Source: Auricularia sp. M13 (Eukaryota > Basidiomycota > Agaricomycetes > Auriculariales > Auriculariaceae). From it: a DNA stretch of 64,000 bases. The stretch spans positions 6,200,001 through 6,264,000 of the forward strand of contig CM073193.1 in the NCBI GenBank assembly GCA_037042915.1. The letters are read 5' to 3'. Shown here one piece after another: positions 1-34,229 of the stretch. A program made the position numbers and the translations under genes. Under the pieces are notes generated by a model. That model was not told where the DNA came from. It did not search any database and saw nothing but the letters and a program-made list of their open reading frames with translations. Every line of letters starts with the position of its first letter. The stretch's first letter is position 1.

Positions 1-1751
1 AGATTGGGTCGAGCGTGTCGCCAAACAGCCCGTGGACGAGACAGGCGAAACACCAGATGTGTGCATTATCGAGGTAAGCCTCACGTGTGTTTGCCGTTTC
101 GTTTAAGCTCACGCTGTTGACCAGCTTGGAGGCACAGTGGGTGACATCGAGAGTGCACCGTTCATCGAGGCCATGCGCCAGTTCCAGTTCCGCGTCGGGC
201 ACGACAATTTCGCGCAGATACACGTCTCGCTGATCCCCGACATGCACGGCGAGCAGAAGACGAAGCCGACCCAGACAACCGTCGGTGTCTCGCGCGGGCT
301 CGGCCTGCTCCCTGACATCGTCGCGTGCCGCCTGCTCGGAAATAGCCCGCTTCTGCCCGCGACCAAGCAGAAGATCTCCATGTTCTGCCATGTGTCGGAG
401 GGCCAGGTCATCGGCGTGCACGACGTCTCGTCGGTGTACCATGTCCCGCTCCTTCTCGAGGCGCAGGGCATTATTCCCTACTTCCAAAAGAGGCTCAACC
501 TCCACGAGCTCACCATCCCAAAATCCATGCTCGACCGCGGCGATGTGCTCCGTCGCCGCTGGCAAGAACTTACGAAAAAGTGTGTTTTATTTGGGGGTTC
601 TTGTAATGGGTCTGACATGAGCTGCTTGCAGTCAAGAACGACTCTTCGACGAGGTGACCATTGTCCTGGTGGGCAAATACACGAGCTTGAAGGACTCGTA
701 CATGTCGGTTATTAAGTCGCTTGAACACTCGGCGTTCCAGTGTAGGCGCAAGCTCAAACTTCAGGTTCGCATTTACGTGCGGGGGCAACTTGCCAGTCCT
801 GCCTGTTGACGTATTTCTGTAGTTGGTGCCATCGGAGGACCTCGAGCGGGAGACCCTCGAAACCGCCCCGGTCAAGTACCATGATGCCTGGCGTGCTCTT
901 GTTGGTGCGCAGGGCGTGCTTGTCCCCGGTGGCTTCGGCCAACGCGGCACGGAGGGCATGATCCTCGCCATCAAGTGGGCGCGCGAGCAGAACGTGCCGT
1001 TCTTTGGCATCTGCCTCGGGTTTCAGGTCGCTGTGGTAGAATGGGCGCGACACGTTCTCGGGTACAAAGGTCTGTGGCTTCGTCCTTCACATCCCACTTG
1101 CTGATTTGCTGACTGTGATTCAGATGCTAACTCGACGGAGTTGGACGAGGCTACTACGCATCCCGTCATCGTGTTCATGCCGGAGATAAGCACGACGGAG
1201 AAGGGCGGCACTATGCGTCTTGGACTGCGCCCGACCGTCTTCGAGCCCGACACGGAGAGCTGGTCGAAAGTGCGCCGTCTGTACGGCGGCGCACCCAAGA
1301 TCTGGGAGCGCCATCGCCACCGGTGGGAGGTCAACCCCAAGATGGTCGACGAGCTGGAGAAGAGTGGGTTGAGGTTCATCGGCAAGGACGAGAAGGGCGA
1401 GCGGATGCAGGTCTTCGAGCTGCCCAGTACGTCAGCGGCCTCTCAAGCCGTCAATCATGCGCTCATTGCTGCGTCCCTGGCACAGATCACCCGTACTTTG
1501 TGGGTCTGCAGGCGCACCCCGAGTTCTGCACGCGGCCGCTTGACCCGTCGCCGCCGTTCCTTGGGTTCGTCGCTGCCGCGTGCGGCCCGCAGGTGGTCGA
1601 GGAGCAGGCTGCGTATCAGGCGCAGCACTACCGGCCGCCGCACCCGCAGGGCGCCATGGTGTCTGAAGCGGAGCTTATCGAGTTCTCCAAGAACAAGTAT
1701 TCGACGCAGACGGATGCCGATGTGGAGACTCGCGTGAACGGTACTTCGTAG
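1..1751 (+). CDS. URA7: CTP synthase, 5'-truncated by the window edge
   Basis: Makes CTP from UTP, ATP and glutamine, the last step of de novo pyrimidine nucleotide synthesis. Six exons are visible: 1-73, 125-579, 632-764, 823-1069, 1124-1426 and 1486-1751, all with GT-AG borders. They encode 491 residues. Compared with the usual 560-580 residues of fungal enzymes, roughly the first 90, including the ATP loop, lie off the window. The synthase signature [14 protein letters not shown] follows the first intron. The glutaminase half begins near KYTSLKDSY and holds PGGFGQRG, the nucleophile motif GICLGFQ (the Cys) and the terminal His/Glu pair in LQAHPEF. All glutaminase catalytic residues are present, so the enzyme should work. 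The protein ends in a short polar tail (VETRVNGTS). The calcineurin gene starts about 270 bp downstream on the same strand. Confidence 0.95.
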
Positions 1752-2022: not shown

Positions 2023-4461
2023 ATGGCATCGATACAGGTCCACCTAGAGCGCGTAATCCACGAGATGACCGACAAGGCCCCCGTGCCCGACACCGACCTG
2101 ACCGTGCACCAGCTGGAGAATGGCGAGACGGTCAGCACGCAGGAGCGGGTCATCAAGGAGGTGCGCTGCTGGCTGGCCTTGGCCTCCAGATAATCCTGGT
2201 GCTCATTGTGCCGGCGCAGGTGCAAGCCCCGGCGATGCGGCTGCCGACGAACGAGGAGTTCTTCTCGGACGCCGACCCCAGCAAGCCCGACGTTGTCTTC
2301 CTCAAAAATCACTTCTACCGCGAGGGCCGGCTGACCGAGGAGCAAGCTCTGTACATCATAGACAAGACTACGGCCGTCCTGCGCGCTGAGCCCAACGTGC
2401 TCGACATTGAGGCACCGTTGACGCGTGCGTTGGCCGTCTTGGGCTTGCTTTCATTCTGGCTCACCTGATGCAGTTTGCGGCGATATCCATGGACAATATG
2501 TATGTTGCCTTGCTCGTTAACCGCAGGCTCGAGCTTATCGCTGGCCAGTACGATCTCATGAAGCTGTTCGAAGTCGGCGGCAACCCGTCAGAGACGCGGT
2601 ACCTCTTCCTGGGAGACTATGTCGACCGGGGCTACTTTAGCATTGAGGTGAGGCCCGTCTCCGCTCCGTCAGGCCTGTCCCAGCTGACAATGACGGACAG
2701 TGTGTTCTGTATCTGTGGGCGCTCAAGATGTGGTACCCGGACTCGCTCTTCCTGCTGCGCGGCAACCACGAGTGCCGCCATCTGACGGATTACTTCACTT
2801 TCAAGCTCGAGTGCAAGCACAAGTACTCCGAACGCATCTACGATGCGTGCATGGAGTCGTTCTGCGCGCTGCCGCTTGCGGCGGTCATGAACAAGCAATT
2901 CTTGTGCATCCACGGCGGGCTGTCGCCTGAGCTCCAAACCCTTGATGATTTACGCAGCGTGAGGACCTTCTTACCGCTCCACTGTACCCCGACTTACATT
3001 GCCGTGATAGCTCGACCGTTTCCGCGAGCCGCCTACGTCGGGGCTTATGTGCGATATCCTTTGGGCTGATCCTGTCGAGGACTTTGGGTCCGAGAAGACG
3101 CAGGAAAGCTTCATACACAACCACGTCCGCGGCTGCTCGTATTTCTTCACGTGCGCGAACCTTTCCCACCTGGTCACACGACCAACGCTCATTGAAATTT
3201 CTATTTACCATTATTATCAAGATACCAAGCAGCATGCCAATTCCTCGACCGCAACCAGCTCTTGTCCATCATTCGTGCGCATGAAGCGCAGGACCAAGGA
3301 TACCGCATGTACCGCAAGACCAAGACGACCGGTTTCCCCTCTGTCATGACTATCTTCTCTGCGCCCAACTACCTCGACGTCTACAATAACAAGGCTGCGG
3401 TTATCAAGTACGAGAGCAACGTCATGAACATCCGGCAATTCAACGCGACCCCGCATCCGTACTGGCTGCCCAACTTTATGAACGCGTTCACTTGGAGTCT
3501 GCCTTTCGTCGGTGAAAAAAGTGTGTGCCCATTTTCATTTTTTCACTGCGCGTCTGTAAAGGCTGCCACTTTCGCATTATGTCTCTCTTCACTGTACATT
3601 TCCGTGGCTGATCGCTGACCCACATTGATCAGTTACGGACATGTTAATAGCCGTCCTGAACTGTTGCAGCAAGGATGAGCTGGACGAGAGCGACGAGGAG
3701 GTCGTGCCGGTGTCGCCGACGACCGAGAAGGACGAGCGCAAGAAGGTCATCCGTAACAAGATCCTGGCCGTCGGCAGGATGGCGCGCGTGTTTGCTCTTC
3801 TTCGGTGGGCATAGCGATGCATTCTTCCGCGGACTTCACTCACCAGCGCATCTCGCAGAGAGGAATCCGAGCGCGTATCGGAATTGAAGACGGTGTCGGG
3901 TTCGTCGCGACTCCCGCCGGGTGCACTTGCGCTTGGTGCAGAGGGCATCAAGGATGCTATCACCTCGTTCGAGGATGCGTACGTGCTTTGCGCTGTGCTT
4001 CCTCGCGCTGGCGGCTGACGACATGCAGTCGGAAATCGGACATCGAGAACGAGCGCCTCCCGCCGGATCTGGTCGACCCGGACGACCCAGAGGCGATGGC
4101 GATGTTCTCTGCGCCGTCGACGCCGTCGGCGCAGACGGACTTCTCGTCGGAGCCTGTGACGCCGCCGCACGTGACGCCGATCGACACGACGCCGGCGTCG
4201 AGCGTGCCGCCGTCACCTTCCAGCGCCGGCGGGCTGGCGTCGCCGCGGACGCCTGGGTCGGCGTCGATCTTCAAGCGCGGGCACGCGCGCGCGTCGAGCC
4301 TGGGTACGACGACGACGAGCCCGAGCACGCGTCGGCGGAGCATCGAGAGCACGATGAGCCTCATCAAGGAGACGATGGAGGGCCGCAGCGAGCAGAGCGA
4401 GGAGATGAAGGCGCTTGCGGCCAACATTGCGAACGCGTCGCAGAAGACCGCTGGGTCTTAG
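2023..4461 (+). CDS. CNA1: Calcineurin A catalytic subunit, tandem copy 1
   Basis: Ca2+/calmodulin-dependent Ser/Thr phosphatase (PP2B) that acts with the calcineurin B subunit. Ten exons: 2023-2160, 2220-2424, 2474-2499, 2549-2647, 2701-2958, 3011-3150, 3222-3520, 3633-3804, 3859-3978 and 4029-4461. They give 629 residues. Metal and catalytic motifs are all kept: [30 protein letters not shown] and IRAHEAQD. The PxIxIT-docking strand reads VMNIRQF. The B-subunit helix ([12 protein letters not shown]), the calmodulin-binding segment ([20 protein letters not shown]) and the autoinhibitory [17 protein letters not shown] follow. A disordered tail ends in a Ser/Arg block, [13 protein letters not shown], also present in basidiomycete Cna1. 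The start chosen is the ATG opening [11 protein letters not shown]. This copy lacks the intron that copies 2 and 3 have after KLEC, and the one after EAQD. It has one inside LLREES that they lack. It is closest to copy 2. Confidence 0.95.
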
Positions 4462-4734
4462 AGACTTTATCTTACTTTGTTGCGGTCCTGTCGGTACATA
4501 GCTTGCAGAGTGTATATAGTCTGACCGTTCTCCCGCTATTGTATGTTTATTGGCTATTGATACGCTGAGGATGAGCGGATTTGGCAGATTCGGTGATTGG
4601 CATGACGGCGATGCTGGCAGACTCCGCGACTCTGCCTCATACCTATATTGTGTCCTGACCCGCCCGCCCGCCGCAACCGTGTTCACAGCATCTAAGGCAG
4701 CCCTCACAATCCCTGTAGCATACCCGATAACCAG

Positions 4735-7449
4735 ATGGCGTCCGCGCGAGCGCACATGCAGCGCGCGCTGCACCAGATTATGGACAAGCCACCGGTGCCC
4801 GACGTCGATTACACTGTCCACCAGCTCGAGAACGGGCTCACCGTCAGCACCCAGGAGCGCGTGGTCAAGGACGTGCGTAGCTGCGAGCTGATCGCGCTTG
4901 TGCTCGCGTGCTGACGGCTGGCAGGTCCAAGCGCCGGCGTTCAATTACCCGACGGACGAGCAGTTCTTCGCGGCCCACGACCCGACCAAGCCCGACATCG
5001 TATTCCTCAAGAACCACTTCTACCGCGAGGGCCGCGTCACCGAGCAGCAGGCACTCTATATCCTCGAGAAGGCCACCGAGCTCCTCCGCGCAGAGCCCAA
5101 CGTGCTCGACGTCGACGCGCCCATCACCAGTGAGTGCTGCCCGTTCGAGCCCGGCCCATCCTGACATGTTCGCGTGCGGTTTACAGTTTGCGGCGATATA
5201 CACGGACAATATGTGCGTGCGCGCGACTAGATCGGCGGGTGTTGCTGGCTGACGCCACCCCGCGACAGTTCGATCTCATGAAGCTCTTCGAGGTCGGCGG
5301 CAACCCTGCAGACACACGATACCTGTTTCTCGGCGACTATGTTGATCGCGGCTACTTCAGCATCGAGGTATGCATTGTGCAATGGGAGACGCAAGAGAAT
5401 TCCACAAGCAGGGCTTGGATACCTCAGCATACCTTCCTGGAACATTGGAGGAGTATTCCCATGAGTTGCAACAACAAACTCATGGGGGCAATGAGGGCAC
5501 ACATGCCAGTTGTTGCTCGCCTGCAACAGCGCTGCATGAATGTTTGTGCATGAGCTGGAGCACTGCACTGGTTTGTTGTTGCAACTCATGGAATACTCCA
5601 ATCTTTCAGGAAGGTATGCTGAGGTATGCAGGCCTCGCTCATGGAATGCTCTTAGTCGCTTCTACACACATCACAGGACACTGAACTTGTGCAGTGCGTG
5701 CTGTATCTATGGGCACTCAAGATCTGGTATCCTACCTCGCTCTTCCTACTCCGCGGCAACCATGAGTGCCGCCATTTGACAGACTACTTCACCTTCAAGC
5801 TCGAGTGTGCGTCACGCTCACTCTAGCTTGTGCACTATTGCTGATCGTCCGCGACAGGCAAACACAAATACTCGGAGCGCATCTACGACGCGTGCATGGA
5901 GTCGTTCTGCACGCTGCCGCTGGCCGCAATCATGAACAAGCAATTTCTGTGCATACATGGTGGCCTGTCGCCGGAGCTCAACACCATTGACGACCTGCGT
6001 AACGTACGCTGCGTCTTCCGTTATCTACTGCCTCGACTGACGCGGTGCAGCTGGACCGCTTCCGGGAGCCGCCCACACAGGGCCTGATGTGCGATATCCT
6101 GTGGTCGGACCCCGTCGAGGACTTTGGCGCGGAAAAGACGCAGGAGAGCTTCCTGCACAATCATGTGCGGGGGTGCTCGTATTTCTTCACGTGCGTGTTT
6201 TTCCCCCTTGGGTGGTCTGACGAGACCGATGACGATGACGACGTGCGCAGATACCGCGCCGCGTGCCAGTTCCTGGACCGCAACCAGCTGCTGTCCATCA
6301 TCCGCGCGCACGAGGCGCAGGACGCTGGGTGCGTGGAGCGCAAATTCACGACGCTCACCGCTCATCGCTGTCCAGATATCGGATGTACTCGAAAACGAAG
6401 ACGACTGGCTTCCCGTCGGTCATGACCGTGTTTTCCGCGCCCAATTACCTGGACGTGTACAATAACAAGGCCGCCGTCATCAAGTACGAAAGCAACGTCA
6501 TGAACATCCGCCAGTTCAACGCGACGCCGCATCCGTATTGGTTACCCAACTTCATGAACGCGTTCACGTGGAGTTTACCGTTCGTTGGGGAGAAGAGTGC
6601 GTCGTCTCTTCTGTGGCCCTTCTAGTCGCGCTTTGGCTTCATCTTACAATAGCTGACGATGCTGCAGTTACTGACATGCTAATCGCGGTATTGAACTGCT
6701 GTAGCAAGGAAGAGTTGGAAGAGAGCGACGAGGAGGTGCAGGTGTCGCCGACGGCCGCCAGCGTGCTGCCACAAGATGAACGGCGGAAGGTGATCAAAAA
6801 CAAGATCCTGGCGGTCGGGCGGATGGCGCGGGTGTTTGCGCTCCTTCGGGAGGAGAGCGAGCGCGTGAGCGAGCTGAAGACGGTGTCGGGGTCGTCGCGG
6901 CTGCCGTACGGGACGCTCGCGCTTGGCGCCGAGGGGATCAAGAACGCGATCACGTCGTTCGAGGACGCGTGCGTCGGGCCTTGCTATATGCGTTTTGCAC
7001 GCTGATTGACTTTTGCGGCGCGGGACAGGCGCAAATCGGACATCGAGAACGAGCGGCTGCCGCCCGAGCTCGTCGACCCGGACGATCCGTCCGCGCAGGC
7101 CATCCTCTCGCCCGGCGCGGAGCATGTGCCGGGCACGCCGCCGTGGGTGCCGCCTGTGGGCGCGATTGACACGAGCGGGTCATACATGAGCCAGCCGGGC
7201 ACGCCCACGTCGCCGCTGAGCCCGGGGAGCGCGTCGATATTCAAGCGCGGGCACGGGCGCTCGGCCAGCCTCGGGACGACGATGACGAGCCCCAGCACGC
7301 GGCGGCGGAGCATGGAGAGCACGATGAGCCTGATCAAGGAGACCATGGACCCCACGCGGCCGGCGTGGGCGCTCGGCCACCCCGGCGCGAACGGCGACGG
7401 CGACAGCGCCCACAGCAGTCCCGCGCCGCCGTCGCCCACGAGCCCCTAG
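4735..7449 (+). CDS. CNA1: Calcineurin A catalytic subunit, tandem copy 2
   Basis: Second complete PP2B catalytic subunit, starting 273 bp after copy 1 stops. Eleven exons: 4735-4872, 4925-5129, 5187-5212, 5269-5367, 5695-5806, 5858-6003, 6051-6190, 6251-6328, 6376-6596, 6668-6968 and 7029-7449. They give 628 residues. Every metal-ligand motif, the B-binding helix, the calmodulin segment and the autoinhibitory [17 protein letters not shown] are intact. The tail carries the same SPSTRRRS block but ends in a Pro/Ser stretch unlike copy 1. Intron 4 (5368-5694, 327 nt) is about six times longer than its neighbours because it holds a foldback element. Conserved reading frame and splice sites argue that this is a working gene. 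Which of copies 1 and 2 is the main CNA1 cannot be told from sequence alone. Confidence 0.94.
5391..5651. repeat. Foldback (MITE-like) element in intron 4 of calcineurin copy 2
   Basis: The two ends are imperfect inverted copies of each other. GAGTTGCAACAACAAAC near 5461-5477 matches GTTTGTTGTTGCAACTC near 5571-5587. ATACCTCAGCATACCTTCCT on the left is mirrored by AGGAAGGTATGCTGAGGTAT on the right. Arms are roughly 80-87 nt around a loop of about 93 nt. No clear target-site duplication was found, so the exact ends are approximate. It explains the single long intron in the calcineurin array. Confidence 0.75.
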
Positions 7450-7667
7450 CACGCTTTTGTGCGCGTGTGCCCGTTGTCGTTCGCTTTGCGCTGTTGCCCG
7501 CTGCCGTGTGCCGTGTATGCCGTTGTACGATTTGAATGAGAGAGTGATGACTCGTAGTGCAAGTGCCGATGTCGGGATTGCCTGTTGCGGGCCTTCGTTT
7601 CTTGTCTTCTGCCGTGCATACGCATAATTGGTGAGGCGCCGCCTGAGCCGCCACAGCGAGCCCTGGG

Positions 7668-9934
7668 ATGTCGCGCAACAAGACGGACCAGATCATCAAG
7701 GCGGCGACGCAGATACAGGAGAAGCAGCACAACCCGCGGCGCTCGGAGACGCTGGGCATCGTGCGCCGCGAGAACGGCACGCTGGTGCGCACGCGGGAGC
7801 GCGTCGTGGGCGATGTGCGTGGGCCCTTTGGCATCGTGCTGGCCGCTGCTGACGCCCGCGCAGGTGCCGCCGCCGGCCGCGGGGACGCCGAGCAGCGAGG
7901 AGCTGTTCAGCAAGAACGACCCGTCCAAGCCCGACCTGGGCTTCCTCAAGCAGCATTTCTTCCGCGAGGGCCGCCTGACGGAGGACCAGGCGCTCTGGAT
8001 CATCCAGCAGGCCACCGTCATCTTCAGATCCGAGCCCAATCTGCTCGACGTCGAGGCCCCCGTCACCGGTGCGCGCCCCGCCCTGTGCCACCCCGCAGCC
8101 CGTGCTGACCACCACCCCCGCGCGCAGTCTGCGGCGATATACACGGCCAGTTCGTGCGTGCTGCCCCCGCCCGCCCTGCGATTCCCTGTGGCTCACGCGC
8201 GCCGCGCAGTACGATCTCCTGAAGCTGTTCGAGATCGGCGGCAACCCTGCAGACACGCGATACCTGTTTCTCGGCGACTATGTCGACCGCGGTTACTTCA
8301 GCATCGAGGTGAGCTGTCTGCGAGCTTGACGCGTGAAGCGCTCACGCGCCGGCGGCGCAGTGCGTGCTGTATCTTTGGGCCCACAAGATATGGTATCCCA
8401 AGACGTTCCACCTCCTCCGCGGCAACCACGAGTGCCGCCACCTCACGGACTACTTTACATTCAAGCTAGAATGTGCGCGCTGCGTCTTGAGCCCGCCGGC
8501 GCTGCTTATTCCTGCATTCTAGGCTTGCACAAATACTCGGAAAAGGTCTACGACGCCTGCATGGAATCCTTCTGCGCGCTGCCGCTCGCGGCCGTCATGA
8601 ACAAGCAGTTCTTCTGCGTACACGGCGGCCTGTCGCCCGAGCTCATCACGCTCGACGACTTGCGTGCCGTTCGTCATGCTCCACTAAACTTTTCGTCCGC
8701 CCGCTGACCCGCTGTTCCGCAGCTCGACCGCTTCAGGGAACCGCCCACGCACGGGCTGATGTGCGACCTGTTGTGGGCCGACCCCATCGAGGACTTTGGC
8801 GAGGAGCGCACGCCGCAGAACTTTGTGCACAACCATGTGCGCGGCTGCTCGTTCTTCTACACGTACGCGTCTACATTCCGTGGCGCAATTGAGCCGTCGG
8901 CTGATTTCCACGCGTCGCGTCAATAGCTATCGAGCCGTGACCGCGTTCCTCGAGCGCAACAAGCTCATGGCCGTCATACGCGCGCACGAGGCGCAGGACG
9001 CTGGGTGAGTGGGCGTCTTCGGTCGCGTGAGCGGATAGGGGCTTACGCCGCGTGGCACAGGTTCCGGCTCTACAAGCGCACGGCGAGCTTTTCGTCCGTG
9101 CTCACGATATTCTCGGCGCCCAATTATCTCGACATGCACAACAACAAGGCGGCCGTGCTGCTGTACGGCAACAACTCGATGAACATTCGCCAGTTCAACG
9201 CGATGCCGCACCCGTATTGGCTGCCGAATTTCATGGACGCGTTCACGTGGAGTCTGCCGTTCGTGGGCGAAAAGAGTACGTTGTTCCTTATATAACTTTC
9301 TATTAACGTGAAAATGAGCTCATATGATCTGCTTCTAGTTACGGATATGTTGATTGCGATACTGGACTGCTGTAGCAAAGAGGAATTGGAGGAGGAGGAA
9401 GCGGACGAGGACGTTACCATGGACATCGACGAACGGCGGCGCGCGATCAAGAACAAGATTCTCGCCGTCGGGCGCATCAACCGTGTGTTCACGCTTCTGC
9501 GCGAGGAGAGCGAGCGCGTGTCGGAGCTCAAGGCGGGCATGGTGTCCGGCAAGCTGCCGTACGGCGCGCTGGCGCTCGGCGTGGACGGCGTGCCGGGCGG
9601 CTCGCGCTCGTTCGAGGACGTGCGGAAGCTCGACATCGAGAACGAGCGGCTGCCGCCGCAGCTCGTCGACGAGGACGTCGCGATGGAGGAGGTGCGGCGG
9701 CGCGGGTCCGGGAGCGGGAGCGGCGCGCCGCGGCTCGAGCGCCGCGCGAGCGTCGGCACGACGCGGAGCACGAGCCCGAGCAACCGGCGGCGGAGCATCG
9801 AGAACACGATGGCGCACATCAAGGAGGCGCTCGACGGCACCGCCGTCGCGGACGACCAGGCCGTCGCCGAACTCGCCGAGCAGCTCAGCAGGGCGTGGAC
9901 CCACACCAACTCGGCGAGGCCGCGCGCGCTCTAG
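7668..9934 (+). CDS. CNA1: Calcineurin A catalytic subunit, tandem copy 3 (divergent)
   Basis: Third PP2B catalytic subunit, 218 bp after copy 2. Ten exons: 7668-7814, 7864-8068, 8128-8153, 8210-8308, 8361-8472, 8523-8668, 8723-8862, 8927-9004, 9061-9275 and 9339-9934. They give 587 residues. The catalytic motifs [29 protein letters not shown] and IRAHEAQD are unchanged. Elsewhere it departs from copies 1 and 2. The N-terminus is new ([15 protein letters not shown]). The segment [15 protein letters not shown] becomes [18 protein letters not shown] is FEIGG, the acidic linker after the B helix is longer, and the Ser/Pro tail is shorter. The last intron, in the autoinhibitory region, is absent. 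The Ser/Arg block ([13 protein letters not shown]) is kept. It looks functional but specialised. Confidence 0.93.
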
Positions 9935-12132: not shown

Positions 12133-12258
12133 AAAGCTCGGACAGCTAGGGAAGTGCATAGAGAGCTTGGGATAGCTAGTGAAATGCAACGAGAGCTGGG
12201 GATAGCCAATAAAATGCGAGGAAAGCTAATAAAGTGCGAGGAAAGCTGGGGGATAACT
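12133..12258. repeat. Degenerate minisatellite, about four units of roughly 30 bp
   Basis: Recurring words AGCTGGGGATAGC, AAATGC and GAGGAAAGCT follow one another with drift. The array overlaps the 3' end of the minus-strand F-box gene by a couple of bases, so it forms that gene's immediate 3' flank. Confidence 0.55.
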
Positions 12259-13876
12259 AGGGGCGCGGCAAGTACTGTTCGGTACTCCACTTGAATGAGT
12301 CCTCCGATTCGGAGTTCGTCTCGTCGAAAGGGAACGTGGTCGTGGTGCCGACGTAGACGGTTGCGGGGTATGAGCCTACGGACGTATGCTCTCGGCTCGT
12401 GAATTTGGGACCGAGGACGTTCAGGCGCTGCAGCTGAGGGGAGAAGCAGTCTTGGGCTAGCTTGGTCGCCAATTCGACGCACTGGTCCTCAGCCACATCG
12501 AGTTGGTTGGATCGTATCATGAAAGCAGGAGTTCGGGGTTCAAAGCAGAGCGTGAAGATACGTAACCGCGGGCATGCCGCAATGGGGCGGACGGCAGAGA
12601 TTTCCTCGAGCGTACCCTTGAGGAATAGCTCCTCCAGCGCATAGAACTCAAGGAACGCGTCCCGAAGCTCGGAGAGAGTCTGCCACTCGACCGCATAGAG
12701 GCGCAGTGCGCGCAGGCTGTGCCATAGGAGCGGGAGGATGCCCAAGAGGAAGGGTCCGGCCACGCCGCCCGAGAGACGGCGTACGAAGCCTTGCGCGTCG
12801 CGGACGCGGAGATGTGTGTGATGATATTCATCGAGCAGCGTGATGTCCTGGAGCTGGTCGACGATATCGCGAAAGAGTCCTTGGTCGAGAGGAGTGAGGT
12901 GGACGTTGCACTCGATGAGCCGGATTCGCGAGCACTCCAAGCGCGCCGTGAAGAACTGGACATGTCTGGCCGGGGTGTGGTGTGCCCGCAGAATCTGGAA
13001 CCCGCCCGATTTCTGACTGTATTCGCCCAGCAGCATGTGGTCGATGCACGTGCTGAGAAGAGGCTCGTCCCAAGACTGGTCTCCACATGCGTCCTCGCGC
13101 TGAGACAGGGGGAAAAACAATTCGAGCTGCCGGAGATGAGGGTTGGCCTGGATGATGGCGAAGAGGTCTGCCGGAGTGAGGCTGCTGGGGACATGGAGAA
13201 CGAGGACGCAGAGATGTCTGCAGGAGGCGACAACGCCGATGCCCCTCACGCCCCGCAAGAGTACAAGCTCATGCAGGGCCGGAAAACCTGTCTTCTCTGT
13301 TTGACTCTCATCCATACGAGGATCAATGAGCGCCAGAGGACCAGACCGGGGCTCGTCCCAGTGGACGTTCAGTCTCTCCAGCTGAGGCATCGCCGGAACG
13401 TGCAAGTAGGTTGCTTCCGGAGCCTTGCTAGAGAAACGCGCGGGACGCATTATATCGTCCAGGGAGAAGATGGCCGTCGGACCACGAGAGGGCGGCGGGA
13501 CGCGGATGGTCAGGCTACGCAGCCGGCCAAGATGCGGTGCGAGAGCAGCGAAAGCGGGATCGGGGGCTGAAGAGGGCCATGAGCTTTGCACCACGCAGAC
13601 ATCAAGAGGAGCCGCCTTGGACCGCGTAAGGAGCAGAGGCGCGCCAGTCCTGATTCTGTCGGTGTCGAACGTCAAGTCGGTCCACAGTATGGCCGTATTC
13701 AGCGCAATTTTGCGCCAGAAATGGCATACGTGAGTGGTCACGATGCGGTCGCGTAGTGGGAGGCGCAGAAAGACAAGGATGAGGATGTCTTCCGGCGGCT
13801 TGGCGATGTCGAATCCCACGGCCATCGCGTGCTTTGCTACCACACGGACAGCTTCCGGTCGAATGGGAGGAGACAT
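12257..13876 (-). CDS. F-box/leucine-rich protein
   Basis: 539 residues, single exon. The F-box lies near residues 27-75 (PPEDILILVFLRLPLRD, THVCHFWRKIAL, LWTDL). A linker RSKAAPLDV is shared with the interrupted F-box gene at 43405-54364. The body is a run of irregular leucine-rich segments (LHELVLLRGVRGIG, LEELFLKGTLEEIS, LRIFTLCFE). The predicted role is a substrate adaptor of an SCF ubiquitin ligase. Length matches the paralogues in this window (534 and about 536 residues). Stop and start are clean and nothing is missing. The target is unknown. Confidence 0.85.
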   Translation of the reverse strand: MSPPIRPEAVRVVAKHAMAVGFDIAKPPEDILILVFLRLPLRDRIVTTHVCHFWRKIALNTAILWTDLTFDTDRIRTGAPLLLTRSKAAPLDVCVVQSSWPSSAPDPAFAALAPHLGRLRSLTIRVPPPSRGPTAIFSLDDIMRPARFSSKAPEATYLHVPAMPQLERLNVHWDEPRSGPLALIDPRMDESQTEKTGFPALHELVLLRGVRGIGVVASCRHLCVLVLHVPSSLTPADLFAIIQANPHLRQLELFFPLSQREDACGDQSWDEPLLSTCIDHMLLGEYSQKSGGFQILRAHHTPARHVQFFTARLECSRIRLIECNVHLTPLDQGLFRDIVDQLQDITLLDEYHHTHLRVRDAQGFVRRLSGGVAGPFLLGILPLLWHSLRALRLYAVEWQTLSELRDAFLEFYALEELFLKGTLEEISAVRPIAACPRLRIFTLCFEPRTPAFMIRSNQLDVAEDQCVELATKLAQDCFSPQLQRLNVLGPKFTSREHTSVGSYPATVYVGTTTTFPFDETNSESEDSFKWSTEQYLPRP

Positions 13877-16021: not shown

Positions 16022-16629
16022 AGCCAGGGTCAGGCTCATGTCATTCTCTGGGGTTGCAGAACCGTTGACTTTCTGTATAGACGACCCAATCATCTTCTCA
16101 AACGAATCATAGGCATTTCCTCCGCACAGGCATTCCCGGCGATTTTTCAGGCCGACTTTGAGCGCCTTCTTTCCTGCAGCAGGTTGACACATTGCAAGAC
16201 TGGATGTGTGCCGCAGCTCAGGGTAGGGAGATGGATGTCTCTTTTCCCACACGTCTTGTCGGCCGAAGACGTCCATATTGCTCCCTTTCTGTGCCAATGC
16301 CTGGCCCCTCCACCGCGTTACGAGTCCTTGACGAGCTCGGGATGCGCGCATGCTGAAGAGGTTCAAGATTTCTCAGTTTCAGAATCAACGTCGCCATGAT
16401 GTTATTGGTACGAAACGAGATGCCAGTAGCCCGAAGTATAGTCCCTGAATGTCCGTAGAACTAATAGAGTTCATAATGCACCTCACAGGATGGAAGAATC
16501 ACCGATACAATTTGCGGTGAACGGGCGACGTGTGGTCAAGTAAATATCTTCGACCAGTCGCAACATCGACGTTTCGAAGATTCAGCTTCGGCCTCCGAAG
16601 CGGTCTCGAAAAGCAAGCGTACGGGATGC
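16022..16629. other. Intergenic, nothing recognised
   Basis: Lies between the small membrane-protein gene and the 3' end of the minus-strand kinase gene. It includes that gene's probable 3' flank. I see no repeat or RNA gene. Confidence 0.4.
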
Positions 16630-17809
16630 TCAGCTAAGGAAGGCTGAGGGGAACCCGAGTCTAGGCCGTACCGAAGCCAGCTGGCGCCTGTATGCACGAG
16701 CTGAGTCGTGTGTGGGCAAGGCACGGGCTGGCGATCGCTGCCAGTAGTTGCTGCGCCGACTGTAGCACAGTCGCACCAGGGCAGCCACGAGGCCCCGTTG
16801 CAGATGTGCAAGCTGTACTGCTGTCTCAGCCTCGCATTCGTCCAGGGTATCATGAAGCTGACCCGTATAACATAGAAAACGACTCTTTGGCGAAATTGAG
16901 TGCGATTTCGGGAAACGCGCGCTTGAAGGCGCGAATCAAACCCAGAGAGAAATCGCCCAGTATGGCTTTTGCTTCTGGGCCTATCCGGGTAGACTTGGAA
17001 AACAAGAATAGATACGCAGCTATAATTCTCAAGGGTGAGCCAACGTCGCATGGGAGGGTTCGGGAGAGGATGGAACTCACTGAATCTCGCGACATCTAGG
17101 CCAATGCGCCCCATTCCCGCGAACTCCCAGTCTATCACTGCGACCTTTGGCAACCCGTCTTCCCCAGGCACGATGAAGACGTTAGCGTGCCACATGTCGC
17201 CGTGGGAGAAGGCCAGACGATCCCCAGGGAGGCGATCCTTGTCGGCGTCGAAACGCAGCCAGGTCTCGTCGAGGGCCGCGCTCAGGCTCTCCGCATCGGG
17301 AATACCGCACGCCTCGAGCGTGCGGCGTAGCGGCCTGACTGTGGCGTTGAAGAGCACCGCATCCGCGTCCGGGTTGGAGAAATGGGTGCGCAGGCCGTCC
17401 AGCGCGCTCGGTGGCAAAGCCCACGTGGCCGCATGCAGGGTCCCCAGAAAGCGGCCCAGCGCGGCCCCAAGGCACGCCGCGTTTGTGCTTGTCGGGAGCG
17501 GAGATGCGAAAAGCCAATCTGCGACGGGAACCAGCTTGCCCAGGTCCGTCTGAAGCAGGACGTGCTGCTCCGGGGAGTAATGAAGAAGCTCAGGAACGAC
17601 TATTTGGGGATGTTGCCGCAGCAGATGCAGTGTTGAGGGCGGGAGAAGACTCCTAAGCGAAATGCTGCCAGAGAAAAGTTCCAGTGCACGAGCCTCCATC
17701 GCCTAATAACGGTTTAAGCATTGGAATCGAAGAAAAAAGCATTGCGCACCAGTCTCACGGGACTGAAGGGCACCTCTGGGCCTGGGTATCGCAGTGAAGC
17801 TGGAGCGTG
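16630..17809 (-). pseudogene. Choline/aminoglycoside-kinase-like gene, 3' part (split by a LINE)
   Basis: C-terminal part of a protein-kinase-like small-molecule kinase (APH/ChoK fold). Exons on the minus strand: 17809-17750 (ends in PFSPVRL), 17702-17081 and 17019 onward. It carries the helix-C motif EARAL, the catalytic loop FSHGDMWHANVF (His-Gly-Asp with the following Asn) and the metal-binding VAVIDWEFAG. A helical C-lobe (TAYLFLFSKS to SFSMLYG) follows. The nucleotide loop and ATP-binding Lys lie 11.8 kb away at 29613-29851, beyond the LINE. The splice pattern after SFSMLYG is not clear, so the 16630 end is tentative; the frame stays open to 16536. The substrate is unknown. As the coding exon is interrupted, this allele should be null. 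Confidence 0.8.
17796..17809. repeat. Left target-site duplication of the LINE
   Basis: GAAGCTGGAGCGTG, identical to 29613-29626, directly after the LINE poly(A). It lies in the kinase coding exon (reverse strand: codons for HAPAS). Confidence 0.9.
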
Positions 17810-23960: not shown

Positions 23961-26900
23961 GTGCGTCCGGACGCGCAGAAGAGTAACGAAAGGCATAGTT
24001 CGCCGCGCTGGCCGGTAATGTCAGCTGTGCGGTGGGGGCGCGCTGGCCCACACTCGCGAGATATAGCAGCGCAATCAACTCCATCTCAAGACTCAGAAAA
24101 ACACTCGGTGACGAAAGACAGGTCGGTACACACGGCTCCGTCTGTCGGAGCGGCGGAGACTCAGTCTGCCACTTCGTCCGCGTATGAAGACGACGGGGTC
24201 CCAGGCGGCAGGCACGATGCGTATAGCGGCGCTGCCCACTCGGAGAGTAACAGCAGCGCCAGCGCGCTTTCCTTTCCCTCTTCGCAACAAAACCCGCAGC
24301 TGCCATGGCAGCAACGGAGCGAAGAGATTTCAAATGGTGCCGAGCCTTCTCAGGCTGGCCCATTACTACAATATTCGGATAGCTGGCTAAGAAGCAGCCT
24401 TCCGCCTAGGTCGTCGATGACACCCACATCGCCATCAGCGCACGAGAGCACTACCAGTGTCTCATCGGCATCCAGTTCTAATCACGAACAAGACCCGATT
24501 CTGAACGGGAAAAATACCAAGGCGTATATTAAAATTGCGTCCGAGAATATAAGAGGAAGAGGTGCCCCGAAGATTGCAGGTAGCTTGAAGTGGAGGAAAC
24601 TGGCGGACGACATTCGGCGTGATAAAATAGGCATTTTTGCACTGCAAGAAACGCACCTTACGGATGAGTACGTCGATGAGCTACACCTCTTCTACAGTCA
24701 CTTGAGAATTGAAAATTCTCCCCTGCCTGGGAATCCGTCAGGCGCAGCGGGAGTCGCGCTAATTTTCAACAAGAACCTCACAAATCACAAGTCAGTAACA
24801 ACGCATGTGATAATCCCGGGGCGTGCGATAATCTCCACGCTGAATTGGCACAGAGGTGTCAACCTCTCGGTGATGGCAGTATACGCTCCGACCAACCAGA
24901 AAGCGAATGCGGAATTCTGGAATAAAATCAAGAGAGTGCTACGTGCCGACAAATCAATTCCGCGACCAGATGTACTGCTGGGGGACTTTAACTTCGTCGA
25001 GGATCCGCTAGATAGATTCCCCGCGAAGCTGTCCAAAATAGACGCTCCGGCGTCCTTCGACAAACTAAAAAAGCACCTGAAAGTCGCAGACGGATGGCGC
25101 CACACCTTCCCTGACAAGATCGAGTGGACATGGCGAAATACGGCGCGGACGACAATGTCGAGACTGGACAGGATATACCTCACCAGGACAGCGTTGGCGG
25201 CAAGCCGGGGCTGGGAAATTAAACTGTCAGGCATCAACAGAGATGACCACAGTAGGGTACAAGTGGAGCTGACAAACCTGGACATGCCAGATGTCGGCCA
25301 AGGTAGATGGACGATGAGAGAGTCACTCCTACGCGACGAAGCCTTCATGAAGGCCGCAAACGAGTTGAATAAAGCTGCACACCAGGATATTATTGACCAA
25401 GCCCTCGGCAATCGCACTGCATTACTGAACCCCCAAACTACATGGGCAAAGCTGAAGGAGGACCTTGTTTCCCTTGCGAAGCGACGCACGCGTGAGACAA
25501 ACTGCGCTCATCTCACACTGTCGAACAAAGCGCTGCAAGAACGCGAAGAGGGCAAGCAGAAAATGCGGCTGGCGGACACGCAGGAGCAGCGTGAGGCCGC
25601 AGCAAAGCAGGTCGCGAGAGCGGAGAAGAACATCCACGACATTAAACACAGGGTCCACTGCCGCACTCTCACGCAAAGAACGACGCGCGCATGGGCCGAA
25701 GGCGAGACAATGAACAAGTCCTGGTTCCGCTGGGCAAAAGAAGGCCAAGCTCGAGACACAATGCTGCAGTTGATCAAACCAGGTAGCGACCCGCCCGTTT
25801 ATGTAGTGGGCTCGAAGAGCATGGCGGAGCTAGCTAAAGAATACCATGACTCGATCCAGCTCAAGGATCTGGATATAGACGAGAACGGGCGAGCAGAAGC
25901 CACCACCGACGTTTTGGACCACATTGAACGTACCGTGAACGACCAGGACAGGGAGCGCCTCGAGAAGCCAATCGACGAAGAGGACGTGGTGGAGGCGATC
26001 CTCACCTCGAAAAATGGCTCTGCGGCAGGCCTCGATGGCCTTATATACGAGCTGTGGAAGGTGCTGCATGCCAGACACTGCAGCTCGAAGAACGGCGAGC
26101 AGCCGTGGGCAAATATTGCGGCGATCATCACAGCGCTCTTCCAGGACATTGAGAAACACGGGCTTGTAGAGAAATCCTCTTTCACTGAAGGGTGGCTATG
26201 CCCCCTGTACAAGAAAGGAGACAAGTGCGACATTTCAAACTATAGGCCCATCACACTATTAAACACAGATTACAAATTGTACACCAAGATACTCGCCATA
26301 AGATTGGCCAGGGCAGCGCCGGACCTCATCCACGAGTCGCAAGCAGGCTTTGTGAGAGGTAGGAACATAGCCGACCACACCAAAATATCTGCACTGATGC
26401 TGGACTACGCGGAGGCAATGGAAGTAAACGGCGCGATAATCGCGCTGGACCAGGAGAAGGCCTATGACCGCATACGGCATGATTATCTCCACGAAGTACT
26501 GAAGCGCTTCGGCTTCCCAGAACATTTCGTCAACCAAGTTAAAGTTCTGTACGAAAATGCGTACACATCGGTCATGATAAACGGGTTCTTGAGCTCGCTT
26601 CCGAGTGACGCGGGGGTCCGACAGGGCGACCCCTGTCCTGCCTATTGTTCAACCTGGCAATTGAACCATTGTCAGCAATGATGCGCAGGTCGAACCTGCG
26701 CGGCTACCAAATCGAGGGACTGCAAGAGAAATTAATCGCGACCTTATACGCGGATGACACCACCGTCTACCTGCACGAGGACGACTCATACGATCTTCTG
26801 GCGTCAATCCTCGATAGCTGGTGTCTCGCGTCAGGCGCGAAATTCAACGTCGCAAAGACTGAGATCATTCCCCTGGGCTCTAGAGCATATCGCGCAGAGC

Positions 26901-29401
26901 TAATCGAGTCGCGGCGCCTCAGCCCGGTTTCGGCGCCCTTCCCAGACGGAGTGAGAATCGCCACGGACGGCGAGCCAACGCGTATTCTTGGGACTTGGCC
27001 TGGGAACGGCGTAGAAAATGCGAACGCCTGGTCGGTCATTATGGACCGCATACAAGACGCATTCGAAAAATGGGAACGGCGACGTCCGAGCATGAACGGC
27101 AGGAGCATGCTGTCGCAGGTCATAGTAGGAGGATACACACAATTCCTGACGGCAGCTCAGGGCATGCCTACAAAAATGGAACAGAAACTAGACAAACTCA
27201 CGTTGGACTTCCTGTGGGGAGGAGCACGAAGACACCCAATCAATATGGACGTGCTCCGCCAACCTAAAGACAATGGTGGGATAGGCCTGTTCTGCGCTGA
27301 GGAAAGAAACGAAGCCCAGTATCTCACGTGGGTAGGAGCGTACCTCGCAAAGCCTGAAGTGCGCCCGACCTGGGCCTTTATTGCCGACCATATTTTCAGA
27401 GCGGCTATTATAGGAAAAGACCGCAGATTAGTTCCCACAGATGCAAGAATAAACCCCTTTTACCAGGCGTGGCGGACGAATCCAAAGAAACTGCCTTTTT
27501 TTATGCGACAAATGGTTAGAGTGGCAAAAAAGCACCAGCTTGTCCTCGACGCACCGGTGATCTCATCGGAAGTTCGGGAATCAATGCCAATCTGGGCTCA
27601 CCCAGCTCTGGCGGATCCGGACGCGCTGAGGCGCGGTAAGCCAGAGATCAGATGCATACGACGCCACCATGCAGTGAGAACTGTGGAGGACCTGGAAGAA
27701 CTAGCTGAGCCGGACCACGAGGATCACGAGGCCGCCACTGACTGCGCGTGCGAGGACTGCATGACGGACCGTGCAGAAGGATGCAGGAAACCATACCGGT
27801 GTCAACTCCTCGCCGAAGATATTTTGAGCAGCATCATGGGCAAATGGAACACCTCCACAGCATGCGCAGAAGTGAAGCCGGATTTATGGACGGTCTTCGA
27901 AGACCAGCGCGCGAATGCGATAGCAGATGGCGAGGCCATAGTTTTTGATCCACGTCTAGACCCTGGCGACGACGCCGCAGACTACTATCGCGCATTTGTC
28001 GATTCCCTGGCCTTACAAGGCAGGAGCGCGGCCGAAACTATGCGAGCTGCAGCAGTAGAAAGAGAACCGTCCGCCTTGATACCAGAACCTATCCAAGCAA
28101 TCATCTACGGCGCGATGTGTCTAGCGGACACGAACGATGCACGTGGGGGTTACGCCGTTGTATTCCCAGACGGCGATGCTGAAGACTCTGCAGGCTTTTG
28201 CCCTGGCATGCAACACAGCTACATTAGAAGCGTAGCGATCGCGGCGATCGTCGCGATATCTCAGGTCCCGGCGAACCAGCCCCTGCACCTCGTATCGACC
28301 TGTAAACAGCTCGTCATGGTGCTGACAACACGCCTCCACTTCCACGAATCTCGAGGCTGGCTGGATATGCCGCGGGAAGCAGATGCCCTGCGCGCAGCAG
28401 TCTGCGCCCTGCGTGCGCGCACGGCGGAAACTACTTTCACCTTCATCAATAAAAAAAGAGCCCAGCACTGGCCGCAGATTTGTGATGCGAAGAAGACGGC
28501 GGAAGTTGCGGCGGACCTAGGGCCCGTACGCGAAGTCGACATGCTGAACTTTGTAAGCTTTGATAAGCCTGGGTTATCTATCCAAGGTATATCACAGAAT
28601 CTGGCACATCGGGCCATCAAGTACGCGAAGCTGGCCAAGTCCGGAACCCGGCGAGCGACGGCCGCGAATATCGAAATGGTAAAAGGGAGCCTTGCGCGGG
28701 CTCGGGGCCACGCGCCGACCACAACACAAATATGGAACAGCCTACGGACGCGGGATTTCTCACGAAATGTCAGGAATTTCATGTGGAAATGCCTGCATGG
28801 CGCACATAAAGTCGGCGAGTATTTCAGCAACATGCCGGAGCCATGGCGAAGTTACGCGCGATGCCCGACGTGCGAAGTTACGGAATCAATGGAACATATA
28901 CTTCTAGAATGCCCAGATACGCCGCACGAGCTCATATTGGGCCTGGTCCGACGGTTTTTTGCGCACAAACGGATCAAGGTGGATATTGATATGGGCATGA
29001 TCCTGGGCTGCGGGACGATGCACGTCGGAAATTTTAGCAGTAACCGTTGCAAGGCGGCCGAAAGAGCCTTCCGCATAGTTGTATCGGAATCCGCGTTCCT
29101 CATATGGAAGATGCGATGTGAGAAGAGGATCGAGCATTCGGAGGATCCTGACTGGACTGTTTCCAACGCCGAAGCTCGCGCGCGCTGGGTTAGAACAATA
29201 AAGCTACGCAGCCTCAGGGACAGGCTCCTGTCCAACCGCCAGCGTTACAAGCACTGGCCGGTCTCGGAATGGTTGGCCAAGGAAACTTGGATGAATTGCC
29301 TCAACATGGACAATTACTCGTTTGCCGCGATAGAAACTGCACGATGGCGACCCGGAGTTTTAGTGGGTACGGGAGGCGCCCAAGCCACAGGAGTGGGTTG
29401 A
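23961..29401 (+). pseudogene. LINE ORF2: endonuclease, reverse transcriptase, RNase H-like, zinc motif; one frameshift
   Basis: The endonuclease domain, about 24520-25290, has LQETH, VLLGDFNFVEDP and the terminal RDDHSRVQ. Reverse transcriptase, about 26020-27150, has LYKKGDKCDISNYRPITLL, AGFVRGRNIADH, ALDQEKAYDR, the catalytic TLYADDTTVY and the thumb region. A one-base loss in a C run near 26632 (after VRQGDP) shifts the frame in the middle of RT. The two open frames are 23961-26681 and 26645-29401. Next comes an RNase H-like fold (about 28080-28520) that lacks most active-site acids. A CX2CX7HX4C motif (CPTCEVTESMEHILLEC) near 28863 closes the protein. The first ATG is used, but the real start may be later. 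Confidence 0.88.
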
Positions 29402-32624: not shown

Positions 32625-34229
32625 TCAGAATGTGCTCGCAATCTCATGGTCACCGATGAATTCGAACGGCTTGCTAGACAGGCGAGCAGACGGAAACCTA
32701 CCTCGATTGAGCAGGATAAGTCTGTCGAAGAGGCCCGTGTGGCGCGTTTCGTAGGCCTCATTGGTAACCAGCGCGGAATCCACGACCACAAGCTCGCGCA
32801 GCGGTCGTTGATAGCCGTGCAAGCGAACCGCCACGATCGCTGCAGCCAGGGTCCAGTGGGAGGACCCGTAAGTATACGAAGGACGCGCCAGTGGATGCAG
32901 CGCAGCGTCGGTGATCTCTATGACGACTGTCACAAGGCGCGGGCAGAGAACGGAGCGCTGTCTGTTGCCGAAGTGCAGTGCGGTCCCGACGAGATAGAGC
33001 TCCTCCAGGGCGAGGAGCTGGATATCGGAACGGCTGTTGAGCGCATCCACCCATTCCTCAACATCTACCCTTAACGCGCGGAGTGCGTCGAAGCAGGGCA
33101 GCGTCAGCAGAAGGCGCATAGCTATGCATGGAAAGATAAGTTGAAATCCGCGCTCGTCTTCGAGGCGAAATAGAGGTATTTCCCACAAGCTGCGCCGACA
33201 GTGTCGGAGGTCCAGAAAGCGGATAGTCTGCAGGTGCGGCAGGGAGTTCTGTATAATCTCCTGGAGGGTCGACGTGGCGATGAACTCTATATCTAACACG
33301 ATATAGAGAAGCGAAGGGGATGAAAGACGGCGCAAGAGCAATGAGAGCTCTCTCGTTTCGAGATGTTCTCCGGACAACAACAGAGTATCCATATCATGTA
33401 CGATGGGAGTGCCGTCTTCAATCCACTCTGTTCGGGAAACCCATGGGTTGGGCAGCATATACAACGCGAGGTTTCTGAGCAGGGGGTTCCTCAGCACAAT
33501 GGAGGAAATGTGCGCGATTTGCCAGTCACGGGGCCAATCAAGCGCCAGGGATCGCAGAGCTGTGCAGGGCGTCCAAAGTGCAGCTGAGAAATCTACACCA
33601 CGCAGGATAAGATGCTGAAGAGAAGCATGAACAATGCTGGTGGGTGCGCGTAGTGCGATGGTCAATTGGCCGTCGAGCTCCCGGTTCCAGTCAATGTGCA
33701 GTATCCGCAGCTGGTGGTCTCCAGGTAGTGCCAGTGTTATAGGCTGAGGAGGCATTTCTCCTGGTAGCAGGGATATAGGAGTGTCGGACCGTAGGTTGAG
33801 TTGATTTCTGGCTGGCCGGATGGAAAGGTGGCGCACTCGATACATGTGAGGCGAGATAGCATCGATGAGGTCGGGTGCTGCAGGCCTTTCACAATCGCGA
33901 TGACGATTGAGACGAATGGAAATTGGCGCGGCGCGGGAGAGGGCTAGTAATTCACGCAGGGCATCCATGCACTCGCCTCCAAGCTCAACGTCGGTCCATA
34001 ACGATGGTGTCTCGAATCCGAGTAAACGCCAATAATAGCAGACATGCGTGATGATGACGAGCTCTAAGGCAGGAAAGAGCGAGAATATGCGTACCAGCAC
34101 GTCTGCAGGTAACTGGTTGACGCGGGTGTCGCGAGCTAGACGAAGTCTTTGTTCGCTATGTAGCGCGTCGAGGTGGTGCAGGACGTCGCGCCGAAGTAAC
34201 TCCATTGCACGCACACACGCGTCTTTCAT
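32625..34229 (-). CDS. F-box/leucine-rich protein
   Basis: 534 residues, single exon. N-terminal LHSEQRLRLARDTRVNQLP leads into the F-box (LPADVLVRIFSLFPALEL, ITHVCYYWRLLGFETPSLW). Nearly the same opening occurs in the F-box gene at 43405 (HSQLRLRLSAASRINQLP), so the two are paralogues. The middle holds irregular leucine-rich segments (LQHLILRGVDFSAALW, LRSLALDWPRDWQ, LEELYLVGTALHFG). An SCF-type substrate adaptor is the likely role; the target is unknown. It converges tail to tail with the LCB3-like gene, 320 bp away. The frame is intact. Confidence 0.85.
   Translation of the reverse strand: MKDACVRAMELLRRDVLHHLDALHSEQRLRLARDTRVNQLPADVLVRIFSLFPALELVIITHVCYYWRLLGFETPSLWTDVELGGECMDALRELLALSRAAPISIRLNRHRDCERPAAPDLIDAISPHMYRVRHLSIRPARNQLNLRSDTPISLLPGEMPPQPITLALPGDHQLRILHIDWNRELDGQLTIALRAPTSIVHASLQHLILRGVDFSAALWTPCTALRSLALDWPRDWQIAHISSIVLRNPLLRNLALYMLPNPWVSRTEWIEDGTPIVHDMDTLLLSGEHLETRELSLLLRRLSSPSLLYIVLDIEFIATSTLQEIIQNSLPHLQTIRFLDLRHCRRSLWEIPLFRLEDERGFQLIFPCIAMRLLLTLPCFDALRALRVDVEEWVDALNSRSDIQLLALEELYLVGTALHFGNRQRSVLCPRLVTVVIEITDAALHPLARPSYTYGSSHWTLAAAIVAVRLHGYQRPLRELVVVDSALVTNEAYETRHTGLFDRLILLNRGRFPSARLSSKPFEFIGDHEIASTF

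What the first reader, a model, noticed from the sequence alone, without database searches (positions are those of the whole stretch)
2023..9934. Three complete calcineurin A genes in tandem
Seen: three head-to-tail genes of 629, 628 and 587 codons, each with every phosphatase motif, B-subunit helix, calmodulin segment and autoinhibitory region. Known: fungi usually carry one catalytic subunit gene (CNA1). A local triplication with retained function implies dosage or specialisation of Ca2+ signalling, for example by nucleus, stage or substrate.
Basis: partly seen in the sequence, partly recalled or inferred. Interest (0 to 1): 0.85.

Follow-up and report, generated by a model that had tools for sequence, protein, structure and literature searches.

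The report
Four tandem calcineurin A genes
A wood-ear-type mushroom carries four neighbouring, long-diverged genes for the calcium-activated phosphatase calcineurin where fungi are usually said to have one, and one of the four keeps its catalytic residues but has a rewritten surface where substrates normally dock.

Summary
Three intact calcineurin A genes (here A, B, C: 629, 628, 587 aa) lie head to tail at 2023-9934. A fourth, D (537 aa), lies just outside the window, beyond the CTP synthase gene. The own-genome search found calcineurin-type C-terminal regions only here and one likely calcineurin B locus. Protein identities of 53-81% and pairwise dS of 0.78-1.90 exclude an assembly duplicate. 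The host looks like an Auricularia. A and B are sister clades, each with members from A. subglabra, Exidia and a third Auriculariales isolate; C has an Exidia ortholog; D has one unnamed, transcript-like ortholog. So this is an old expansion shared by related genera, and plain dosage is unlikely. D keeps all 11 active-site residues checked, but 10 of 12 otherwise invariant sites on its PxIxIT-docking strand are changed, 9 of 12 in its ortholog (best scan p 0.006 and 0.037 over three widths). Best reading: four Ca2+/calmodulin-controlled phosphatases sharing one B subunit, with D altered in substrate docking. Function is inferred; only sequence was tested.

The parts
1..1751 (+). 3' part of the CTP synthase gene lying between copies D and A; its ATG is outside the window at C1:6199350 (read by eye). 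Copy D itself lies wholly outside the window, upstream of this gene, at C1:6197002-6199114 (L009:7002-9114, + strand, 537 aa, 10 exons)
   Evidence: Glutamine amidotransferase class-I match on an 80-aa exon piece, E 8.1e-16; start and stop read by eye; the whole gene was not modelled. Copy D:
2023..4461 (+). Calcineurin A copy A, 629 aa, 10 exons
   Evidence: Gene model; 95% to an Auricularia subglabra protein
3427..3435 (+). NIR codons of copy A (PxIxIT-docking strand; human N330-I331-R332)
   Evidence: sequence
4735..7449 (+). Calcineurin A copy B, 628 aa, 11 exons
   Evidence: Gene model; 96% over 585 columns to a second A. subglabra protein
5368..5694 (+). Intron 4 of copy B, 327 bp, holding a palindromic insertion (58-nt arms 84% complementary; 21-nt arms 100%)
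6503..6511 (+). NIR codons of copy B
   Evidence: sequence
7668..9934 (+). Calcineurin A copy C, 587 aa, 10 exons
   Evidence: Gene model; 83% to an Exidia glandulosa protein
9182..9190 (+). NIR codons of copy C
   Evidence: sequence

Best explanation
This is an old tandem expansion of the gene for the catalytic (A) subunit of calcineurin in the Auriculariales: D - CTP synthase - A - B - C, all on one strand. SHOWN by sequence: four intact reading frames with all 11 active-site residues checked, a B-subunit helix, a calmodulin segment and an autoinhibitory segment; orthologs in related genera; one calcineurin B locus found. INFERRED: each A subunit pairs with the same B subunit and is switched on when Ca2+/calmodulin lifts the autoinhibitory segment. 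A and B keep every docking residue checked in the PxIxIT groove and probably do the conventional work, divided by expression or by their differing tails. C is moderately diverged and keeps NIR. D is a catalytically competent calcineurin whose PxIxIT-docking strand has been rewritten, so it should ignore ordinary PxIxIT substrates and anchors, relying on the LxVP side or on a different motif, and should not sit where PxIxIT anchoring puts calcineurin (septa, in Aspergillus fumigatus).
For: Four intact genes. C-terminal calcineurin matches at one place only in the own-genome search. A and B clades each with three Auriculariales lineages, A+B 100/99 support. C ortholog in Exidia (P0122), whose listed contig length equals that of Exidia A and B. 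C and D orthologs with uninterrupted 590- and 535-aa frames on 2083- and 1749-base contigs, which 9-intron genes cannot give unless the source is spliced RNA. dN/dS about 0.13-0.37 from NG86, rough because dS is near saturation. D active site 0 of 11 changed, but PxIxIT strand 10 of 12 changed; ortholog 0 of 11 and 9 of 12. Scan over all 12-site windows puts the peak at 323-338 in both (p 0.006 and 0.037). N330, Y288, M290 and I331 contact PxIxIT peptides (PMC6677818 passages); the NIR-to-AAA mutant is PxIxIT-binding-defective (PMC6728138 passage) and mislocalises CnaA in A. fumigatus (PMC3749960 section 14).
Against: No expression, enzyme or localisation data. D has also changed elsewhere (63 of 236 invariant catalytic-domain sites, 7 of 20 on the LxVP/B-subunit face), so general relaxation is not excluded; the scan is weaker at other widths (D 0.064 and 0.029; ortholog 0.052 and 0.110 at 8 and 16 sites), and the two are not independent. 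The ortholog keeps N330 and Y288. D is known from this genome and one unnamed source only. Where C and D branch is unresolved. The structure prediction of the D ortholog was poor (mean pLDDT 60).
Confidence: 0.65

Rival explanations
1. Dosage: the copies are redundant and retained to give more calcineurin.
For: All four keep the active site and the regulatory segments; A and B are 81% identical and nearly unchanged at invariant sites (3 and 2 of 297), so dosage or expression division may fit that pair.
Against: One B-subunit locus found, which would cap holoenzyme amount; old divergence (dS 0.78-1.90); clade-conserved changes in C and D; no gene conversion keeping copies alike (12 tests, p 0.21-0.98).
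Confidence: 0.15
2. C and/or D are decaying relics, or D is a decoy that binds the B subunit or calmodulin and restrains the others.
For: D is on a very long branch, lacks the long Ser/Pro-rich tail and has lost part of its docking surface. No C or D match named A. subglabra or isolate MPI-PUGE-AT-0066 appears among the 120 rows listed in each.
Against: Intact frames over ten exons; 0 of 11 active-site changes in D and its 68%-identical ortholog; transcript-like contigs for C and D orthologs. A decoy would not need an intact active site.
Confidence: 0.17
3. Assembly duplication of one gene.
For: None found.
Against: 53-81% protein identity, different intron sets, orthologs elsewhere.
Confidence: 0.01
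4. C and D are much older paralogs, kept here and lost in most other Agaricomycetes, rather than copies born in the Auriculariales. (This concerns origin and can hold together with the best explanation's function.)
For: Free trees put C outside A+B: with D, beside the outgroup. Holding A+B+C together costs 7.9 log units (p-AU 0.057), B+C together p 0.007. A and B share E270D and D348N; C and D keep D348.
Against: All four sit in one array; treekit warns of long-branch joining; A+B+D and A+D are not rejected (p 0.24, 0.257); introns group A with D and B with C, which fits local origin.
Confidence: 0.3

Closest known systems
Calcineurin A (PP2B catalytic subunit), basidiomycete CNA1 type (e.g. 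Cryptococcus, 6tz8)
   Same: A and B are near-canonical (3 and 2 changes at 297 invariant positions); D residues 26-388 match 6tz8_A at E 3.4e-157; catalytic, B-binding, calmodulin and autoinhibitory segments present in all four.
   Different: Four copies at one locus; C has 34 and D 81 changes at 297 otherwise invariant positions; D lacks NIR and the long Ser/Pro-rich tail.
Mucor circinelloides CnaA/CnaB/CnaC with one CnbR (PMC3764228, abstract and passages seen)
   Same: Several catalytic subunits with a single B subunit in a fungus.
   Different: The passages do not describe a tandem array: synteny around the three genes was not conserved. Docking strand of the Mucor copies not examined by me.
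Engineered NIR-to-AAA calcineurin (human, PMC6728138; A. fumigatus, PMC3749960; passages and section 14 seen)
   Same: Same three positions are affected in D (N330T, I331F, R332L); in those mutants PxIxIT binding or septal localisation is lost.
   Different: D is natural, and two of its replacements are bulky hydrophobic ones within a largely rewritten strand, so it could bind something else rather than nothing. Its ortholog keeps N330.

Membership tests
Calcineurin A (PP2B catalytic subunit) | PPP metallophosphatase domain with intact active site | tested here: met
   PF00149 in B, C and D, the three proteins scanned; 0 of 11 active-site positions (numbering recalled) changed in A, B, C, D
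Calcineurin A (PP2B catalytic subunit) | Best relatives are calcineurin A rather than PP1/PP2A | tested here: met
   D, the most diverged: among the 60 solved chains shown of 94, calcineurin chains have E 1.8e-121 or better and the next, non-calcineurin, chains 1e-69 or weaker. Lists for A, C and D hold many proteins named PP2B or calcineurin; B was not searched separately
Calcineurin A (PP2B catalytic subunit) | B-subunit-binding helix | tested here: met
   Aligned in all four; face 341-361: changed at 1, 1, 0 and 7 of 20 invariant sites in A, B, C, D. Binding itself not testable
Calcineurin A (PP2B catalytic subunit) | Calmodulin-binding and autoinhibitory segments | tested here: met
   Changed at 0, 0, 2 and 7 of 32 invariant sites; ERLPP core present in all four. 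Binding itself not testable
Calcineurin A (PP2B catalytic subunit) | PxIxIT-docking groove (Y288, M290, N330, I331, R332) | tested here: inconclusive
   Met in A and B (0 of 5 changed); C 2 of 5 changed but NIR kept; NOT met in D (5 of 5 changed; ortholog 3 of 5). A substrate-docking feature rather than a defining one, so D is still filed as calcineurin A by the other rows
Calcineurin A (PP2B catalytic subunit) | Ca2+/calmodulin-dependent phosphatase activity with CNB; FK506/CsA sensitivity | not testable with these tools
   Needs protein or strains

The most novel reading that the evidence does not exclude
The array is a natural docking-code expansion: four calcineurins share one B subunit and one calmodulin signal but read different substrate motifs, and D is a natural calcineurin that has left the PxIxIT code for another motif (or for LxVP alone), with a drug-binding face that may also escape FK506 or cyclosporin complexes (L354M, V357L, G358A, E359S).
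Probability: 0.25. Interest if true: 0.75.

Novelty: new variant of a known kind. Interest (0 to 1): 0.5.

Why it matters
PxIxIT docking is treated as a general rule of calcineurin targeting: N330, I331 and R332 are kept in 181, 182 and 181 of the 182 relatives compared. A natural paralog that keeps its catalytic residues and Ca2+/calmodulin control segments but rewrites that strand, beside conventional copies and probably sharing their B subunit, would let one ask directly what PxIxIT docking is for, and how one Ca2+ signal can be split among several phosphatases. It also widens the picture of calcineurin copy number in mushroom-forming fungi.

Tried and rejected
Assembly duplication: rejected on divergence. 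Recent triplication: rejected, orthologs in other genera. Gene conversion: I noticed a long identical stretch in B and C exon 4 and tested runs and windows of identical synonymous codons; none stands out (12 tests, p 0.21-0.98). C from B by duplication: disfavoured (p-AU 0.007), although introns and gene order suggest it. Transposable-element family in B intron 4: the palindrome found no second place in the genome (that search skips common words). Structure of the D ortholog (P0171): mean pLDDT 60, so no fold search was run. Shared upstream DNA: longest exact match between upstream stretches of calcineurin genes 7-8 nt; 7-9 nt for CTP synthase against A, B, C, and 11 nt against D, not followed. 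A bacterial promoter scan on 300 bases is not meaningful for a fungus.

Limits: the three protein searches list 120 of 7,864, 7,879 and 7,966 matches; absence from a list is not absence from a genome. The 182 background proteins come from those lists, hence close kin of the queries; P0104 (a human construct) was dropped, and the 10 Auriculariales-type rows were set apart. The main tree used 48 of the 197 sequences at hand (193 found plus the 4 models), searches used 29 and 28. No fungal genome other than the host could be searched, so neighbourhood in relatives rests on equal contig lengths. Not in print: searches (listings only) showed no paper on calcineurin A copies in Auriculariales; the library holds open-licence papers only.
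Full report
CHECK. All 37 introns of the four models are GT-AG. A Pfam metallophosphatase search of the host genome (C1:6200001-6264000 is the window) also hit just upstream of it. Splicing that stretch gave a fourth full gene, D, 537 aa, at C1:6197002-6199114. The order is D - CTP synthase - A - B - C, one strand, with spacers of 235, 271, 273 and 218 bp by my coordinates.

COPY NUMBER. With protein A as query the own-genome search gave 47 matches. All those reaching past residue 388 (the B-helix, calmodulin and autoinhibitory part) lie in this array; hits elsewhere stay within residues 83-356, as expected for PP1/PP2A-type phosphatases, though I did not name those genes. So one B locus was found; the exon-wise search could miss others.

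AGE AND RELATIVES. Protein identities are A/B 80.9, A/C 64.6, A/D 56.0, B/C 64.7, B/D 56.6, C/D 52.9%. dS (NG86) is 1.07, 1.13, 1.75, 0.78, 1.55 and 1.90 in that order. The best hit of A is an Auricularia subglabra protein at 95%. A. subglabra, Exidia glandulosa and Auriculariales sp. MPI-PUGE-AT-0066 each supply one A-type and one B-type protein, and the two of each species show the same longest-contig length (489221, 291725, 175118), which I take to mean one contig. The tree of 48 rows has A 100/99, B 99/95 and A+B 100/99; without C the A and B clades hold (95/99, 92/95) but their union is unresolved. D has only P0171 (unnamed, 68%). No C or D match named A. subglabra or MPI-0066, and no D from Exidia, is among the listed rows. 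P0003, P0121 and P0171 are full-length frames with longest contigs of 2042, 2083 and 1749 bases; since A, C and D have nine introns each here, I infer spliced RNA, so C and D orthologs are probably transcribed in a relative.

WHERE C AND D COME FROM is open. The tree joins C with D, with a long-branch warning. Without D, C goes beside the outgroup; A+B+C together p-AU 0.057, B+C 0.007. Without C, D is unresolved; A+B+D 0.24, A+D 0.257. Intron positions say otherwise: of 11 positions, one is in A and D only and one in B and C only, matching gene order (A is the calcineurin gene nearest D, and C adjoins B). A and B share E270D and D348N, while C and D keep D348. No gene-conversion tract was found (12 tests, p 0.21-0.98).

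WHAT CHANGED. Among 182 other proteins, 297 columns are at least 98% invariant. Changes there: A 3, B 2, C 34, D 81; orthologs P0121 34, P0122 33, P0171 80. In the catalytic domain (236 sites, human 20-361): C 28, D 63, P0171 61; active-site set (recalled numbering) 0 of 11 in every copy. On the strand 323-338, which carries NIR: A 0, B 0, C 3, D 10, P0171 9 of 12. LxVP/B-subunit face 341-361: A 1, B 1, C 0, D 7, P0171 8 of 20. Calmodulin/autoinhibitory 391-470: 0, 0, 2, 7 and 10 of 32. The strand was picked by eye (hypergeometric p 4e-5 in D, 4e-4 in P0171), so I scanned windows without choosing a place: 323-338 is the peak at 12 sites in both (p 0.006, 0.037); at 8 sites 0.064 and 0.052, at 16 sites 0.029 and 0.110. 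The signal is therefore moderate, and the two rows share ancestry. I331F, R332L, Y324L, P338E and M290L are common to both; P0171 keeps N330 and Y288. C's own changes peak at 288-298 and 285-300 at widths 8 and 12 (p 0.084 and 0.071).

MEANING. Published work seen as passages places Y288, M290 and I331 in the PxIxIT pocket and N330 in hydrogen bonds to it (PMC6677818), uses the N330/I331/R332-to-alanine protein as a PxIxIT-binding-defective mutant (PMC6728138), and finds that NIR-AAA removes CnaA from septa in A. fumigatus (PMC3749960 section 14). D should therefore dock differently. D and C also lack a Ser-Pro in the linker between B-helix and calmodulin segment, where A and B each have one; in A. 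fumigatus that linker is phosphorylated (PMC3749960 abstract). In Mucor, CnaA changes N370D and S378T in the B-subunit/FKBP12-FK506 region gave FK506 resistance (PMC3764228 passages); D's face there is altered at other positions, so altered drug sensitivity is a guess only.

VERDICT. A variant of a known enzyme family, with one copy (D) that makes a good test of docking.

Noticed in passing
window 5368-5694: Intron 4 of copy B is 327 bp (other introns of the four genes 47-112 bp) and holds a palindrome with 58-nt and 21-nt arms, a MITE-like look; no second genomic place was found.
   Followed up: partly
C1:6120106-6120924 (outside the window): The UNC-50 gene lies about 76 kb upstream of the array. 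Two listed proteins (P0160 Leucocoprinus, P0173 Meripilus) carry PF00149 plus PF05216 in one model, hinting that the two genes are neighbours in other mushrooms.
   Followed up: partly
P0023 and P0154 (Suillus subluteus): Two calcineurin A proteins with the same longest-contig length (1394755); one has N330Y in the docking triad: perhaps an independent local duplication.
   Followed up: no
window 44114-52795: A 2893-aa open frame with protease, reverse transcriptase, RNase H and integrase domains: a long retroelement, Ty3-like by domain order.
   Followed up: no
window 24018-29401: Two adjoining frames, the first with endonuclease and reverse transcriptase, the second with weak zf-RVT and reverse transcriptase matches: a LINE-like element split between frames.
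   Followed up: no
window 12257-13876 and 32625-34229 (- strand): F-box-like proteins; 16536-17699 (-) is a phosphotransferase-family (APH) protein.
   Followed up: no
L009:1624-4511: A gene that by eye looks like the TORC2 subunit Sin1 lies upstream of copy D (name from memory, not tested).
   Followed up: no
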